Assembly (NCBI GenBank): GCA_002706765.1
Contig: PAJV01000013.1
Coordinates: 1 to 64,000, forward strand
Length of the DNA: 64,000 nt
Direction of reading: 5' to 3'
Source of the DNA: Gimesia sp.
GTDB lineage: Bacteria; Planctomycetota; Planctomycetia; Planctomycetales; Planctomycetaceae
In this document: positions 56,834 through 63,941 of the stretch, piece by piece
Layout of the letters: the number at the start of each line of letters is the position of its first letter
Position numbering within the stretch: the first letter of the stretch is position 1
Program-made: the position numbers and the translations under genes
Notes under the pieces: generated by a model
Database searches by the model: none
Told to the model about the DNA's origin: nothing
The model's input: only the letters and a program-made list of their open reading frames with translations

Positions 56834-57496
56834 ATGCTGGCCAAGCTATTTACCTATTCGCTGTTTGGCATTGATGCCAAGCCTGTGGAAGTGGAAGTCG
56901 ATATCTCTCCCGGGGCGATGCCTAAAACGATTCTGGTGGGGCTGGCCGAAGCAGCTGTCAAAGAGAGTACGCATCGTATTGAGCGGGCGCTGGTCAACAG
57001 TGGCTATAACCGTCCCATCGATCGCATTGTCATTAATCTGTCTCCCGCGGATCTCCCCAAGGACGCTGCTTCGTTCGATCTCCCCATCGCGCTGGGTCTG
57101 TTGACTGCCAGCGGGCAACTGGCTTCAGATCGCTTTCAGGATTATGCGGCAGTTGGCGAACTGGCACTGGATGGCACGATTCGCCCGGTGCGCGGTGCTC
57201 TCTCAATGGCGCTGGCAGCGCGGGAGCAGGGTAAACAGGGTTTACTGGTTCCCGTTCAAAATGCAGAAGAAGCAGCTGTTGTAGATGGACTGGATGTCTT
57301 TGCCGTCGGGACCCTGGCGGAAGCCGTTGGTTTTTTCACAGGCTCTTTACCAGTTGAACCGGTAGAATTCTGCTGGGAGAATGCCCTGGAAGAACATGGC
57401 CACTACGATATCGATTACAGTGATGTGAAAGGACAGGAATACGCCAAGCGGGCCATTACGGTCGCTGCTGCCGGAATGCATCATTTATTGATGTGA
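56834..57496 (+). pseudogene. comM: comM (YifB, Mg chelatase-like) truncated after the N-terminal domain
   Basis: 220 residues of an expected about 500. The N-terminal ChlI-like domain is intact (LFTYSLFGIDAKPVEVEVDISPGAMPKTILVGLAEAAVKESTHRIERALVNSGY ... NLSPADLPKDAASFDLPIALGLLTASGQL). It ends DYSDVKGQEYAKRAITVAAAGMHHLLM and then stop; the family continues IGPPGTGKT, so the break is right before Walker A. Foreign, AT-rich DNA follows. In competent bacteria ComM is a hexameric helicase helping branch migration of transformed DNA; dprA lies intact 10 kb upstream. Confidence 0.9.
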
Positions 57497-58238: not shown

Positions 58239-58373
58239 TCATTTCTTTTTCTTGTTTCGAACTGGCTTTGGCGGTTTCTCTTGAGTTATTTCTGCCTTCC
58301 TTGGAGTCTTGGGGCGGTTGAATGGAACTACCCCCTCTGTTATCCGAGTTCCCTTCTCTTCATTACTAGTCAT
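58239..58373 (-). CDS. microprotein 5 of the Pro/Lys-rich operon
   Basis: 44 residues: MTSNEEKGTRITEGVVPFNR then PKTPRKAEITQEKPPKPVRNKKKK. Carries the shared G-x-[VI]-P core (EGVVPFNRPKTP) and a Lys-rich tail. Last gene of the six-gene minus operon; it starts 12 nt after microprotein 4. Too short for family recognition, but the shared motif and tight spacing make it coding. Confidence 0.6.
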   Translation of the reverse strand: MTSNEEKGTRITEGVVPFNRPKTPRKAEITQEKPPKPVRNKKKK

Positions 58374-58385
58374 TCTAATTCACTC

Positions 58386-58502
58386 TTATTTCTTTACCTG
58401 CTTGTTTGATTGTGATGGTTTAGTCTGTCCCTTACCGTGATCTTTCGGTGGTTTGGGAGACACATATCCTCTTTTGATTGAATCGTCTGAATTATCGCTC
58501 AT
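58386..58502 (-). CDS. microprotein 4 of the Pro/Lys-rich operon
   Basis: 38 residues: MSDNSDDSIKRGYVSPKPPK then DHGKGQTKPSQSNKQVKK. It begins acidic, then has the motif GYVSPKPPKD, then a basic tail. Its ATG shares one A with the stop of microprotein 3 (TAATG), so translation is coupled. Confidence 0.65.
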   Translation of the reverse strand: MSDNSDDSIKRGYVSPKPPKDHGKGQTKPSQSNKQVKK

Positions 58503-58645
58503 TACTTTTTATCCTGTTTGGGTTTATCTGGCTTACTGACTTTTGCTTCAGTTTTCATAGCTTTTGGTGGACTTGCTGGTACTCTGCCTAATTTTGCATT
58601 TTCCTCGTCGTCGTCACAATTCCTTAAATTGAATTCTTTATTCAT
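58502..58645 (-). CDS. microprotein 3 of the Pro/Lys-rich operon
   Basis: 47 residues: MNKEFNLRNCDDDEENAK then LGRVPASPPKAMKTEAKVSKPDKPKQDKK. Acidic head with one Cys, motif GRVPASPPK, basic tail. It starts 11 nt after the three-helix membrane protein gene and its stop overlaps the next ATG. Confidence 0.65.
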   Translation of the reverse strand: MNKEFNLRNCDDDEENAKLGRVPASPPKAMKTEAKVSKPDKPKQDKK

Positions 58646-58656
58646 AAATCAATTCC

Positions 58657-59088
58657 TTACAAATTTAGATAAACGAAAATGCCTAAAAAGATTGAACCAA
58701 GTATGAGAAAACCGAATGATGCAAGGTTGCAGTATTTTACATGATCCATTTTAGAATCATATATTTTCAATTTAACCTCATCCCAAACTAAATCCGGTTC
58801 CAAGACTTCTTCACGATAAAATCGAGTGCAGGATTGACTCAACAAGAAAGATGTAAGGGTTGAGAAAAGACACAAGAAGGAAAAAAACCAAGATACTGCA
58901 AGATAGAACTTTGAGCATTTTTCAATATTATCGATGCTATTGACAAAAAGGATTGAGAGCGAGAAAGCACCACTTGAGAGAGCGACTAGAAGCTTGTCGT
59001 ATTGTTCCGACTCTCTATGCTCCATTTCAATAGTCTTTTCCCTTTCGCTCAAATACAAATCATATTTCTTCTGATCTTCTTCAGTCAT
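58657..59088 (-). CDS. three-helix membrane protein (SLATT-like)
   Basis: 143 residues. N-terminal helix with charged repeats (KYDLYLSEREKTIEMEHRESEQYDKLLVAL), then three membrane helices: about 35-52, 62-85 and 118-141. The layout and the phrase GAFSLSILFVNSI recall SLATT-type conflict proteins, in which a charged helix precedes two or three membrane helices. Its ATG overlaps the end of microprotein 2 (ATGACTGA). Hypothesis: membrane partner of the microproteins, possibly in defence or toxicity; no evidence for either beyond architecture. Confidence 0.75.
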   Translation of the reverse strand: MTEEDQKKYDLYLSEREKTIEMEHRESEQYDKLLVALSSGAFSLSILFVNSIDNIEKCSKFYLAVSWFFSFLCLFSTLTSFLLSQSCTRFYREEVLEPDLVWDEVKLKIYDSKMDHVKYCNLASFGFLILGSIFLGIFVYLNL

Positions 59089-59224
59089 TGCGATTAGGTT
59101 TTCTATCTGAAATGAGTTTGTTTTTAGGTTCAGATTTTGGGGGTGGCGCTTGCGGTCTTGCAGGTGGTTTCGCTGGTCTGGGCGGTATCACGCCATGTTT
59201 TCTCTCTTTATCTCTGTCGTTCAT
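59081..59224 (-). CDS. microprotein 2 of the Pro/Lys-rich operon
   Basis: 47 residues: MNDRDKERKHGVIPPRPAKP then PARPQAPPPKSEPKNKLISDRKPNRND. Motif HGVIPPRPAKP; the richest in Pro. The 3' end overlaps the start of the membrane protein gene by 8 nt, so the two are translated together. Confidence 0.7.
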   Translation of the reverse strand: MNDRDKERKHGVIPPRPAKPPARPQAPPPKSEPKNKLISDRKPNRND

Positions 59225-59265
59225 GATTCAATGCTTTCAAAATACTTTTGCTTCTGATTGGTTTA

Positions 59266-59376
59266 TTAGTCTTTATCTTTTGGTGGTTTTGGTTTCGGTG
59301 GTTCAGTCTTTTCATTCGTAAGGGGCTTTGCAGGCTTCGGCGGAACATAACCACCATTGATTTTTTCTTTACGCAT
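59266..59376 (-). CDS. microprotein 1 of the Pro/Lys-rich operon
   Basis: 36 residues: MRKEKINGGYVPPKPAKPLT then NEKTEPPKPKPPKDKD. Motif GGYVPPKPAKP. AAGGAG stands 10 nt before the ATG. First gene of the operon; the frame extends upstream but this ATG has the ribosome binding site and gives the size of its neighbours. Confidence 0.7.
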   Translation of the reverse strand: MRKEKINGGYVPPKPAKPLTNEKTEPPKPKPPKDKD

Positions 59377-60865: not shown

Positions 60866-60907
60866 ACGACAAAACAAAGTCAGTTGCACAAATTCTGGGA
60901 GAGCACA

Positions 60908-62212
60908 ATGCCGCAAGAATGGTACTACACGAAAGACGGTGAAAGGCAAGGCCCAATCACATCCAAGCAGTTGAAACACCTTGCCAATGTTGGTGAACTT
61001 CAGCCAACCGATTTGGTGTGGACAGAAGGAAAAGACGAGTGGAAGCCTGCGAGTATTGTAAAGGGATTGTTCCCTACGAAGACAGATTCGCCAACGCCAC
61101 CACCGGTCCCCGGCTCAACGAATACGGCCAAAATGGATACGGCACCTGCTCTTTGGAATCCAACTGCCATTCGATTATGGAGTTTGCTTTTTACGTGGGG
61201 CTTTGGTGGATTTTTGATGGCTCAAAATTGGAAGTCATTGGGGGAGCATGAAAAAGCAAAGAAATCGATGATATGGTTTTATTCAATATTTGGTTTCATC
61301 TTTCTTGGGCTGATAACACCTGATGATGATTTCACGCTAAAAATATTTCGTTTTGTAGGACTTGGAGTTCTTGCAGCATGGTCAATATTTTCGGCACAGC
61401 CTCAAATAAATTATATCAAAGAGCGTTTTGGAAATGACTATCAAAGACGTTCTTGGGGAAAGCCAATTGGCATTGTGTCGGCGAGTTTATGCTTTCTGCT
61501 TGTGTTTGCCCTGCTCCCTATGCTGCTTGGTACACCGGCAGAAGTTCTCACAGTCCGGTACGGAAAACTCGACGCTTATCCGGGCATCAGCCTTGGGAAT
61601 GCCATCGACGAGTTTCTATCTGACCCCGAATGGTCTGTTATCGAAAGTGAAGACGGCAATCACTTCGTCAGTATCACTGGCGGAATGACGTATCAGGAAA
61701 AACCCGTGAAAGCATTGCTCCAGTTTCTTGTCGTCGATGATCGCTTTGAATTTACCACTCTTGAGTTTAATGGAATCGATCAGAATGAAATTATGAGAAT
61801 AAGTCTGATGGAAAAGATGATGAGTGATTTCATTGATTCGGCGGGATCGAATGCAGGCGGTGTGGTGCCACAAGAGACGGCATCGCAAGTAACGACATTG
61901 AGCGATTCAGAGATAATGGACTTCATTGATAACACCAAAGAGTACAAAGGCAAGGTCATTAGAATGATACTGACGATGCCTAGTGGTTTTCTTCGATCAG
62001 GTGGATCGATTGCGTTCTATGCTTTTGTCGGGACCAATAAGCTTGACGTGATGATTAACGTTGCGCCGTCTTCTGTAGATTCTTTGGCAGAGTTCAATTC
62101 CCTCGACGATCTTCCAAATGCAGATCTATTTTCCAAACTTGAAGTCACATTTCTGTGTGAAGAGGGTTCCTTGAATTACGGAAATCGAGCGATCCGAATT
62201 GAACGACCATAA
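60908..62212 (+). CDS. GYF_2 domain membrane protein
   Basis: 434 residues from ATG at 60908 (GGGAG 6 nt upstream). The first 60 residues, EWYYTKDGERQGPITSKQLKHLANVGELQPTDLVWTEGKDEWKPAS, form a GYF_2 (DUF4339) domain that binds Pro-rich peptides. Several membrane helices follow (about 85-210), then a globular C-terminal part (about 220-434). GYF domains read proline-rich ligands, and the Pro-rich microproteins lie 1.5 kb away in the same island, a link that is only suggestive. Preceded by the structured RNA and tag copy 2. Confidence 0.8.
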   Translation: MPQEWYYTKDGERQGPITSKQLKHLANVGELQPTDLVWTEGKDEWKPASIVKGLFPTKTDSPTPPPVPGSTNTAKMDTAPALWNPTAIRLWSLLFTWGFGGFLMAQNWKSLGEHEKAKKSMIWFYSIFGFIFLGLITPDDDFTLKIFRFVGLGVLAAWSIFSAQPQINYIKERFGNDYQRRSWGKPIGIVSASLCFLLVFALLPMLLGTPAEVLTVRYGKLDAYPGISLGNAIDEFLSDPEWSVIESEDGNHFVSITGGMTYQEKPVKALLQFLVVDDRFEFTTLEFNGIDQNEIMRISLMEKMMSDFIDSAGSNAGGVVPQETASQVTTLSDSEIMDFIDNTKEYKGKVIRMILTMPSGFLRSGGSIAFYAFVGTNKLDVMINVAPSSVDSLAEFNSLDDLPNADLFSKLEVTFLCEEGSLNYGNRAIRIERP

Positions 62213-62219
62213 TAAAGTC

Positions 62220-62226
62220 AGGACAC
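62220..62226 (+). repeat. partial cassette tag (AGGACAC)
   Basis: First seven bases of the tag, 36 nt before the GTG at 62263; the following bases (AAAAAAAC) differ from the full copies. Position relative to the gene fits the other three, so it is listed as a likely degenerate copy. Confidence 0.45.
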
Positions 62227-62262
62227 AAAAAAACATCAGCGTAATTTAGCAAAGGGAAAGCC

Positions 62263-62817
62263 GTGAGTACATGTAACTATTGTGGGCGTTATTTTGTTTA
62301 TCCAACAGACCATTTCCCTACCAGTCATGTCGATGCTTTTGCTGGCACTTATTGTAGCCTTCAATGCAAGAGTCAGGGAGAGGGGCATCAACAGAATGAA
62401 AAGAAAGAGAACGCCGAAGTATTTTTCATGATTGTAGCCGGAGTAATCTCTTTAATTGCATTTGTACTTCCCCTAATCATAAAGGGGGGCTCGATGTTGT
62501 TCTCTTGGATTCAAGTTCAATTATCGGGAACTCAATCAAATTCATTTGTTAGTCAGCAGACTCAAGAAACAGACGATTTAGAGATCAATATAGTTGATGA
62601 GAGTGAACCAGTATCGTTTCCATCAACAACACCTCCCCATTCTCAACCAAGAAAGAATCGCCCGAAACAACTCCCTCCTGCTCTGCCAAAATCATTTTCT
62701 TCAACGAAGCACAAATCGAAATCTAGCCCTCCACCAATTCCAAAAACGATTCGATCAAAAGCAGAACCGCCACCACTTCCAATGGATATAAGTCAAAAAA
62801 AACCTCGATCACAATGA
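62263..62817 (+). CDS. membrane protein with N-terminal Cys cluster and basic Pro-rich tail
   Basis: 184 residues with GTG start at 62263 (AAAGGGAAAG upstream). TCNYCGRYFVYPTDHFPTSHVDAFAGTYCSLQCKSQG has CxxC and CxxxC pairs. One membrane helix (FFMIVAGVISLIAFVLPLII) follows, then a tail rich in Pro, Ser and Lys (PRKNRPKQLPPALPKSFSS and PPPIPKTIRSKAEPPPLPM). The tail is Pro-rich like the island's microproteins, and a GYF gene is next door. No family recognised. Confidence 0.65.
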   Translation: MSTCNYCGRYFVYPTDHFPTSHVDAFAGTYCSLQCKSQGEGHQQNEKKENAEVFFMIVAGVISLIAFVLPLIIKGGSMLFSWIQVQLSGTQSNSFVSQQTQETDDLEINIVDESEPVSFPSTTPPHSQPRKNRPKQLPPALPKSFSSTKHKSKSSPPPIPKTIRSKAEPPPLPMDISQKKPRSQ

Positions 62818-62830
62818 ACCGTCGCTCATT

Positions 62831-62844
62831 AGGACACCGGCAAG
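62831..62844 (+). repeat. cassette tag, copy 3 (AGGACACCGGCAAG)
   Basis: Exact match to copies 1 and 2; 44 nt before the ATG at 62889. It lies just after the stop of the preceding gene. Confidence 0.8.
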
Positions 62845-62888
62845 CCCATCCAACAATACATCCTGCAAATCCCAGATTGGAGAACCAC

Positions 62889-63941
62889 ATGTTTCGGTCG
62901 AAAGTTTCTATCGTATCGCTGATATTGTTTTTGTTGATTTCAGTAACCGTTCAAGCAGAAGTCGTTTCCATTGAAGCAACGGTCAAATCTATTGATGCGA
63001 AAGCTCACACCATTACCGTCCAGAGAAAAGACAAAACAACAGAATTAGATGTCAGCCGCAAAGCAAAAATCACACTGCTCGATAAGGATGCAACACTTGA
63101 ATCACTGAAAGCCGGGCAAGAAGTCACATTAACATTCCACACAGAATTGGAGATCGTGCTAAAGATCGAAGCCAGTAAAGAGCCAGAAAAATCCGAGGTT
63201 TTGAATCTGTCGGAATTCAATACGAGTGAGACAGATATGACTCCGTGGCTGTCATCTGACGGCTTGACAATTTATTGGAGTGCGGGAACATTTCCTTCAG
63301 ATTGGTGGATCTGGACTGCTTCTCGAAAAGATGCAAGCTCATTGTTTAAAGACAAGAAGCGATTGTTTCGAGGGCATTCACCAGTCGTGAGTCACGACGG
63401 GTTAGAGTTAATTTTTAATGCTCCTGACTCTCCTAAATTCTTTGCTACTACAAGGGATTCGACAGAAGATGAGTTTCGTAGGCCAAGAGTGATTGAAGAA
63501 TTGCGATTTAACAAGGAAAATCAGTCCGCTCCTCGTTCGCTCTCACATGACGGGTTGAGTCTGTATTTTGATTATTTAGATAAGAAGCATAATCCAAAAT
63601 TCGAAATTTGGTTCACGACCCGAAAGAATCGTAATTCCGCTTGGAAGCCAGCCCAGCCTGTTAAGATATCTACACAAGATGCTTTGAAAGGATTGTCGTT
63701 CACTCAGCCCTTTCTGACGGACGATCAATTGGAGATGTATGTGGTCGTCGGAAAGGAATCTGAAAAGCCGAATATACGATTTGGCATCCTCTCAAGAAAA
63801 ACTCTTGATGCGCCTTTTTCGTCCATTCGATATATCGACCATCAAGGATGGCAAAGGCCCGTTTCCGAATTGCCTGACCCCACGCTACGTCCATGCCACG
63901 CAGGAACTATTCCTCATCTCAAGACTTCTCTTTCGGTCTGA
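62889..63941 (+). pseudogene. exported PD40/TolB-like beta-propeller protein, frameshifted near its 3' end
   Basis: 350 residues from ATG at 62889 (GGAG upstream); the frame extends upstream through the tag but this start has a signal peptide (VSIVSLILFLLISVTVQA). After a small N-terminal domain, repeats such as DMTPWLSSDGLTIYWSAG, HSPVVSHDGLELIFNAP and SAPRSLSHDGLSLYFDYL mark a PD40 propeller. The frame ends at 63941 with PDPTLRPCHAGTIPHLK; in the +1 frame the text continues YVHATQELFLISRLLFRSDDETKKNGIDLWVVKDFIPP to the window edge, as expected for the family. A one-base loss near 63885-63895 is the likely cause. Confidence 0.7.

What the first reader, a model, noticed from the sequence alone, without database searches (positions are those of the whole stretch)
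58239..59376. Operon of five Pro/Lys-rich microproteins and a three-helix membrane protein
Six minus-strand genes with overlaps or short gaps (8-nt ATGACTGA overlap, TAATG overlap, gaps of 11-41 nt). Five encode 36-47 residues and share a G-x-[VI]-[PS]-x-x-P core (GGYVPPKPAKP, HGVIPPRPAKP, GRVPASPPK, GYVSPKPPKD, EGVVPFNRPK) between a polar or acidic head and a Lys-rich tail. The sixth is a SLATT-like membrane protein. Five divergent versions of one peptide around one membrane protein suggests a multi-peptide system: a bacteriocin-like set, a defence system, or a scaffold that binds a Pro-recognising partner. Genes this short are usually missed in annotation.
Basis: partly seen in the sequence, partly recalled or inferred. 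Interest (0 to 1): 0.8.

Follow-up and report, generated by a model that had tools for sequence, protein, structure and literature searches.

The report
Membrane protein with proline-rich microproteins
Five tiny proline-rich proteins encoded around one small membrane protein turn out to be the most expanded example seen here of a gene set that also occurs in distantly related bacteria, plasmids and phages, matches no family in the libraries searched, and has no known job.

Summary
The six genes exist as described and the group is real. The membrane protein (M, 143 aa) matches no Pfam, NCBIfam, PADLOC or PHROGs family. By M sequence I found 14 other M-like loci: in the window's phylum, a Bacteroidota and an Alphaproteobacteria plasmid, a Mu-like prophage of Marinobacterium, and phage-type contigs. 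Directly behind M lies a short ORF of at least 15% proline in 9 of 15 loci, against 6 of 245 control ORF ends (Fisher p 1.7e-9); counting second or upstream ORFs, 12 of 15. A loose core, G-x(1,2)-[VI]-[PS]-x(1,3)-P, recurs in independent peptides (9 matches, 1.5 expected), and their starts carry Shine-Dalgarno-like sites (13 of 21, background 15%). In two loci a Pro-rich stretch is fused in frame to M. The window copy lies 0.75 kb inside an apparent 88-kb serine-recombinase element in comM. "SLATT-like" is not supported by sequence. Best guess: M is an oligomeric inner-membrane effector, and the microproteins are co-translated disordered ligands that hold or tune it, as accessory conflict cargo. 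The module is well supported; its mechanism is inference (about 0.3).

The parts
59266..59376 (-). microprotein A, 36 aa (core GGYVPPKP)
   Evidence: ORF with GGAG 10 nt before ATG; core recurs at other M loci
59081..59224 (-). microprotein B, 47 aa (core HGVIPPRP); overlaps M by 8 nt; no Shine-Dalgarno 4-mer found
58657..59088 (-). M, 143-aa predicted three-helix membrane protein of a family absent from the libraries searched
   Evidence: model
58502..58645 (-). microprotein C, 47 aa (core LGRVPASPP)
   Evidence: ORF with AAGGA before ATG
58386..58502 (-). microprotein D, 38 aa (core RGYVSPKPP); start overlaps the stop of C (TAATG)
   Evidence: AGGA before ATG
58239..58373 (-). microprotein E, 44 aa (looser core EGVVPFNRP); no Shine-Dalgarno 4-mer found
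56834..57496 (+). 5' part of comM, cut at the left end of the apparent element that carries the operon
   Evidence: Mg_chelatase fragments at three places in the genome

Best explanation
Shown: a recurring accessory module of one small membrane protein (M, three predicted helices) plus one to five short proline-rich ORFs placed at the end of M or beside it, several overlapping it. Inferred: M sits in the inner membrane with its long N-terminal helix and second loop in the cytoplasm and assembles into a ring or bundle that can leak or disturb the membrane. The microproteins are disordered cytosolic ligands; many offer a G-x(1,2)-[VI]-[PS] core to M (or to an M-bound partner) and, being made with M by coupled translation, keep it closed. 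Several variants widen or stabilise that hold. When their supply or binding fails, for instance during phage takeover, M opens and the cell stops growing. It works like a toxin with labile inhibitors, carried by mobile elements.
For: Association: 9 of 15 M have a directly next ORF of at least 15% P against 6 of 245 control ORF ends. Overlapping or abutting starts: -74 nt L034, -53 L028, -47 L030, -4 L004, 0 L069. In-frame fusion in two loci, L004 (GYTPPPAP and GYVPPPAPP tail) and L070 (AVPPPLP tail, with the same AVPPPLP in the separate peptide), argues for a shared site of action. Shine-Dalgarno-like 4-mers at 13 of 21 peptide starts against 239 of 1604 background ATG/GTG. Three-helix layout in two models; N-term and loop 2 hold more K/R than loop 1 in 12 of 12 M (not corrected for segment length, and loop 1 is the shortest). 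Location: apparent serine-recombinase element in comM, integrase and DUF3987 near L004, Mu-like prophage L034, TerL 1.4 kb from L060, resolvase beside L066; 12 nt behind an MmeI-like methylase in L006 and about 330 nt behind an Eco57I-type one in L032.
Against: No toxicity, binding or oligomer is shown. No useful PADLOC match. Under the inferred topology M's C-terminal tail would face outward while free peptides stay inside, so the fusions fit only if the tail is also made separately from an internal start, or if the topology is wrong. Peptide charge is not conserved (net -9 to +14). L003 and L071 have M without a peptide, L056 is borderline, and L003 is not recovered by the nine-member profile. 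The strict core is absent from 9 of 12 non-window loci and the looser one from 6 of 12. Eight of 21 peptide starts lack a Shine-Dalgarno 4-mer. Six of the 15 loci come from plasmid, phage or viral collections, so mobility is partly built into the sampling; both plasmids are typed non-mobilizable.
Confidence: 0.3

Rival explanations
1. Scaffold or adaptor: M is a membrane anchor and the microproteins are multivalent short-motif ligands that recruit a cytosolic (perhaps host or phage) partner to the membrane. No pore is involved.
For: Repeated core-like copies per locus, counted by eye (five in the window, two to three in L004, L028, L060, L069, L070); proline-rich disordered sequence is typical of ligand motifs (established knowledge); in-frame fusion to M.
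Against: No conserved third gene was recognised, but neighbours were read by eye and only ten were scanned with profiles. The only candidate partner in the window, the GYF_2 protein at 60884, lies on the other strand, and the peptides have no PPG.
Confidence: 0.3
2. Phage or element exclusion factor: M plus peptides sit in the membrane of the lysogen or carrier and block entry of competing phages or plasmids, without killing.
For: Positions in a Mu-like prophage among head genes, 1.4 kb from TerL in L060, and between VirB11 and VirD4 on a plasmid.
Against: PHROGs gives nothing better than E 0.07, all of unknown function, for ten proteins searched; by eye the peptides have no export signal.
Confidence: 0.15
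3. Translation-stress sensor: the proline runs stall ribosomes when EF-P or translation is impaired, which changes how much M or peptide is made.
For: Runs of three or more prolines in several peptides, for example L006b, L028, L030, L034, L036, L060b, L066a.
Against: Four of five window peptides have no PPP; outside the window the peptide ORFs found follow M rather than lead it.
Confidence: 0.07
4. Multi-peptide bacteriocin set with M as immunity protein.
For: Several small basic peptides beside a small membrane protein; peptide A has a GG near its N-terminus.
Against: GG occurs in A only, among the five; no exporter was recognised beside the loci (by eye); fusion of the peptide to M does not suit an exported toxin.
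Confidence: 0.05
5. The peptides are chance ORFs behind a membrane protein.
For: They are short, low-complexity and poorly conserved; spurious P-rich frames do follow other ORFs now and then (6 of 245).
Against: Enrichment of P-rich ORFs, of the core and of Shine-Dalgarno-like sites in unrelated loci; the window operon is 38% GC, where P-rich ORFs are less expected by composition.
Confidence: 0.04

Closest known systems
SLATT effectors (small membrane effectors of SMODS/SLOG and reverse-transcriptase systems)
   Same: Small helical membrane protein, patchy, in mobile or defence neighbourhoods (SLATT features recalled; of papers I saw search listings only)
   Different: No SLATT model matches any of 12 M; three predicted membrane helices where SLATT has two (recalled); no nucleotide synthase, SLOG or reverse transcriptase recognised beside the loci (by eye); Pro-rich microproteins are not a SLATT feature known to me
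8xMP octameric membrane protein family (PF24838)
   Same: Similar length; one M (L070) aligns over profile 24-133 of 136 at 20.2 bits
   Different: Below the cut-off of 30 bits; a profile comparison with two 8xMP proteins gives probability 0.2%
Toxin-antitoxin systems with a small membrane toxin
   Same: Two kinds of small gene, overlapping or adjoining, often in mobile surroundings
   Different: Nothing shown to be toxic or neutralising; several divergent partner peptides instead of one
Multi-component (class II) bacteriocins
   Same: Several small basic peptides and a small membrane protein
   Different: No leader, exporter or secretion sign recognised (by eye)

Membership tests
SLATT | match to a SLATT profile | tested here: not met
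   0 of 12 M matched any SLATT model in Pfam-A at E <= 0.1. A search of 21 genomes with SLATT_5 rang nowhere, controls included, so it is uninformative
SLATT | linked signal-generating gene (SMODS, SLOG, RT) | tested here: inconclusive
   None recognised among neighbours, which were read by eye, with ten neighbours scanned in Pfam
8xMP (PF24838) | score above the curated cut-off of 30 bits | tested here: not met
   best 20.2 bits, L070; hhalign probability 0.2% against an alignment of only two members
8xMP (PF24838) | octameric assembly | not testable with these tools
   no multimer prediction was available
Known anti-phage defence protein | match to a PADLOC model | tested here: not met
   window proteins: none at E <= 1; 12 M: best E 0.031, to CRISPR ancillary (Can1, CARF) models
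Toxin-antitoxin system | toxicity of one gene, relief by the other | not testable with these tools
   needs the bench
Bacteriocin | leader or signal peptide and exporter | tested here: inconclusive
   by eye only: GG in one of five peptides, no exporter gene recognised beside the operon
GYF ligand | PPG core (recalled) | tested here: not met
   0 of 5 window peptides contain PPG

The most novel reading that the evidence does not exclude
An undescribed class of mobile conflict system in which a small membrane channel is held closed by a set of co-translated proline-motif microproteins; in this window the set has diversified to five variants, perhaps so that different phage proteins that mimic, cleave or compete for the motif each trigger it.
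Probability: 0.15. Interest if true: 0.85.

Novelty: categorically new. Interest (0 to 1): 0.62.

Why it matters
The microproteins lie near or below usual annotation limits, yet the same pairing with one membrane protein family appears in the window's phylum, in Bacteroidota and Alphaproteobacteria plasmids and in phage-type contigs. That gives a concrete set of small genes, a motif and a partner to test, and a possible new kind of mobile-element cargo. It also shows how a whole gene module can stay invisible when half of it is very short and the other half is in no family library searched.

Tried and rejected
SLATT and 8xMP membership. Fold comparison: Foldseek against PDB with two models and against viral models with one gave nothing at E <= 0.001; the models are only moderate and rest on four sequences. 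Sequence search of solved structures gave nothing meaningful. A DNA pattern for the GY-x-PP peptide in 170 family genomes matched 17 genomes, and its reversed control 5. Under the 17 matches one search found an ORF with the motif in 10; none of the ten is a microprotein (169-654 aa) and 7 of them look by eye like one family of long proteins. Dropped as false M hits: L005, L033, L057, L058 (no M-like ORF). L002, L027 and L059 were not examined further. L035, L037, L052, L061, L086 and L087, among others, are repeats of loci already held. The two scans of genome contigs gave only the host of L034 (Marinobacterium litorale); their patterns reach close relatives only, so rarity there is not shown. 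No M relative came from phage records by three of the four M queries tried there (only L060 found one, L066; five searches in all). Literature: ten searches over the held open-access library found no description of such a module; I saw listings only and opened no paper. In one search I gave a wrong-frame peptide for L056; one search repeats the test with the right one. The promoter and terminator scan gave no clear operon borders.

Full report
OBSERVATION. The six minus-strand ORFs are present at the stated places with gaps of 41, -8, 11, -1 and 12 nt. The strict core G-x-[VI]-[PS]-x-x-P is in A, B, C and D; E has a looser form. Within-peptide shuffles give 0.02 expected strict matches against 4, and dinucleotide shuffles of the region give a mean of 0.002 such ORFs. 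Since the core was read from these peptides, the real test is elsewhere. The region is 38% GC against 47% for the window. A promoter and terminator scan gave no clear operon borders: one terminator-like site, on the other strand and fewer than the shuffles give. Co-transcription is therefore inferred from spacing only.

M IS AN UNLISTED FAMILY. M has no hit at E <= 1 in NCBIfam, PADLOC, Pfam or PHROGs. In the window's own genome the only other match at E <= 1 is a weak one with a stop inside. In 170 family genomes, 4 gave a match at E <= 0.01: the window's own, G032 (L003), G005 (L004) and a false one (L005). Iterating from there I collected 14 further M-like loci: L003, L004, L006 (Hymenobacter plasmid), L028 (Acuticoccus plasmid), L030, L032, L034 (Mu-like prophage contig; the same sequence lies in Marinobacterium litorale), L036 and L060 (IMG/VR contigs), L056, L066 (MT837343.1, fecal sample), L069, L070, L071. 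In whole genomes M is rare and patchy: 5 of 392 phylum genomes (one of the five, L033, false), 7 of 392 (a sample that shares genomes; L057 and L058 false, L059 not examined) and 5 of 297 class genomes (L003's genome not among them). Twelve sequences align with majority consensus SYDKxxxTLSGGALGLSIxF and three hydrophobic stretches; only W81 and G141 are invariant. No Pfam match of these 12 reaches its cut-off where I saw one: the weak ones, each in 1 of 12 members, have best E 5.5e-4 (8xMP, L070), and NCBIfam's best is 0.0021. The 8xMP lead is not supported by a profile comparison.

THE MICROPROTEINS GO WITH M. The loci were found by M sequence. Two alignments held tails: A1, with L004's tail, brought in no new locus that I kept, and A7 held tails of L034 and L028, but its scan patterns came from the core. 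Directly behind M (start -80 to +60 nt, 25-100 aa) there is an ORF with at least 15% proline in 9 of 15 loci, against 6 of 245 ends of other ORFs of at least 150 aa in the fetched DNA (Fisher p 1.7e-9). The thresholds were set after seeing the first loci, and the control ORFs are mechanical, not annotated genes. The window is not among the 9, as its next ORF C has 11%. Looking further, L006 has a 45-aa ORF at 31% as second ORF, L060 a 38-aa ORF at 26% as second, and the window has A and B in front; with these, 12 of 15 carry a Pro-rich microprotein. That wider count has no control. L003 and L071 have none; L056 has a 91-aa disordered ORF with KPVKPPAPAE. In L004 and L070 a Pro-rich stretch is the in-frame tail of M, followed by a separate peptide with a related core.

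THE CORE AND THE STARTS. In 17 peptides or tails from 12 other loci the strict core occurs 4 times (0.32 expected, p 2e-4) and the looser G-x(1,2)-[VI]-[PS]-x(1,3)-P 9 times (1.5 expected, p 5e-5), in 3 and 6 of the 12 loci. Examples: L028 GLVSPAPP and GSVSPKPP, L036 GYIPPPPP, L060 LGIRVPIIPP and GLRVPIPPP, L066 GPVPRPP. Half of the loci lack it, so proline richness is the more general trait. Shine-Dalgarno-like 4-mers precede 13 of 21 starts, against 239 of 1604 ATG/GTG codons in the same DNA (p 1e-6; without the window 10 of 16, p 2e-5; in the window 3 of 5). Two of these lie inside M's own frame just after the last helix, GGAGG before a GTG in L004 and GGAG before an ATG in L070, so even the 'fused' tails may also be made as free peptides. 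That nested-start idea is inference.

ANATOMY OF M. AlphaFold with four sequences gives three long helices for the window M (3-51, 60-95, 104-142; pLDDT 70.5, pTM 0.48) and for L060 (4-66, 74-110, 120-153; pLDDT 70.5, pTM 0.59). N-terminus and second loop carry more K/R than the first loop in 12 of 12. The counts are not corrected for length (the first loop is the shortest) and acidic residues are as common, so N-in, C-out is only a working guess. Foldseek finds no match at E <= 0.001.

CONTEXT. The operon starts 0.75 kb inside the left end of an apparent element in comM. comM pieces lie at C13:56834-57496 and C13:145910-146536, with a middle piece on contig C56 beside what reads by eye as the start of a serine recombinase. 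A serine recombinase (Resolvase and Recombinase domains) lies at C13:144215-145852 beside the right piece. That the middle piece is on another contig means the assembly or the element structure is not fully understood. L004 has a phage integrase and DUF3987 within about 6 kb; L034 lies between a Mu F-like gene with a nuclease domain (one gene further upstream) and the Mu-like protease; L060 is 1.4 kb from TerL; L066 is beside a resolvase; L006 starts 12 nt behind an MmeI-like methylase; L032 starts about 330 nt behind an Eco57I-type methylase; L028 lies between VirB11 and VirD4. Both plasmids are typed non-mobilizable. Six of the 15 loci came from plasmid, phage or viral collections, so only whole-genome loci are an unbiased sample: 2 of 6 with peptides (window, L004) show a recombinase or integrase in the stretch read, and for L069 and L070 only about 3.3 kb was read.

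MECHANISM. What is shown is the module, its order, its recurring core, and signs of translation. What follows is inference. Close coupling and fusion suggest the peptides act at M; no export signal visible by eye puts free peptides in the cytosol; accessory location beside restriction-type genes and in prophages suggests conflict. I therefore favour a membrane effector held by its co-translated ligands (0.3), with the scaffold reading equally likely (0.3). The topology problem, outward tails against inward free peptides, is unresolved and is the first thing to test.

NOVELTY. No library searched holds M (Pfam, NCBIfam, PADLOC, PHROGs) or the window peptides (Pfam, NCBIfam, PADLOC), and ten literature searches (listed under Tried and rejected; listings only) over the held open-access papers found no description. 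Most subscription papers are outside that library, so an existing description cannot be excluded.

Noticed in passing
window 56834-57496; contig C13:145910-146536; contig C56:11418-11705: comM is in three pieces in this genome. A serine recombinase lies beside the right piece, and by eye another begins beside the middle piece: comM looks like an attachment site used by one, perhaps two, large serine-recombinase elements.
   Followed up: partly
window 60884-63941 and contig C13 135896-138944: Near both ends of the element lie clusters that look alike by eye: a GYF-domain-type membrane protein (GYF_2 confirmed for the first only) and a secreted protein with a similar N-terminal region.
   Followed up: no
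contig C13 about 99000-119200: By eye, a defence-like cluster inside the same element: type I restriction-like genes, a DUF262-like protein, a GIY-YIG-like protein and a helicase. Not checked with profiles.
   Followed up: no
L034 1013-2230: A Mu F-like head protein is fused to a PBECR2 nuclease domain, two genes upstream of M in that prophage.
   Followed up: no
L060 4409-4870: A 153-aa protein between M and the microprotein has internal repeats (LPAGT, VKLP) and ends in two copies of a G-I-x-V-P-x-I-P-P core with lysines.
   Followed up: partly
L007, L009, L010, L011, L013, L014, L019: By eye, one family of long proteins in several genomes of the window's family shares a GYTPP-proline stretch; unrelated to the microproteins as far as seen.
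   Followed up: no
L028 2657-2848: A 63-aa ORF (MSGKNLRPGQKAPRSGQYEI...) precedes M on the Acuticoccus plasmid; it looks like a separate, widespread small-protein family (recalled).
   Followed up: no
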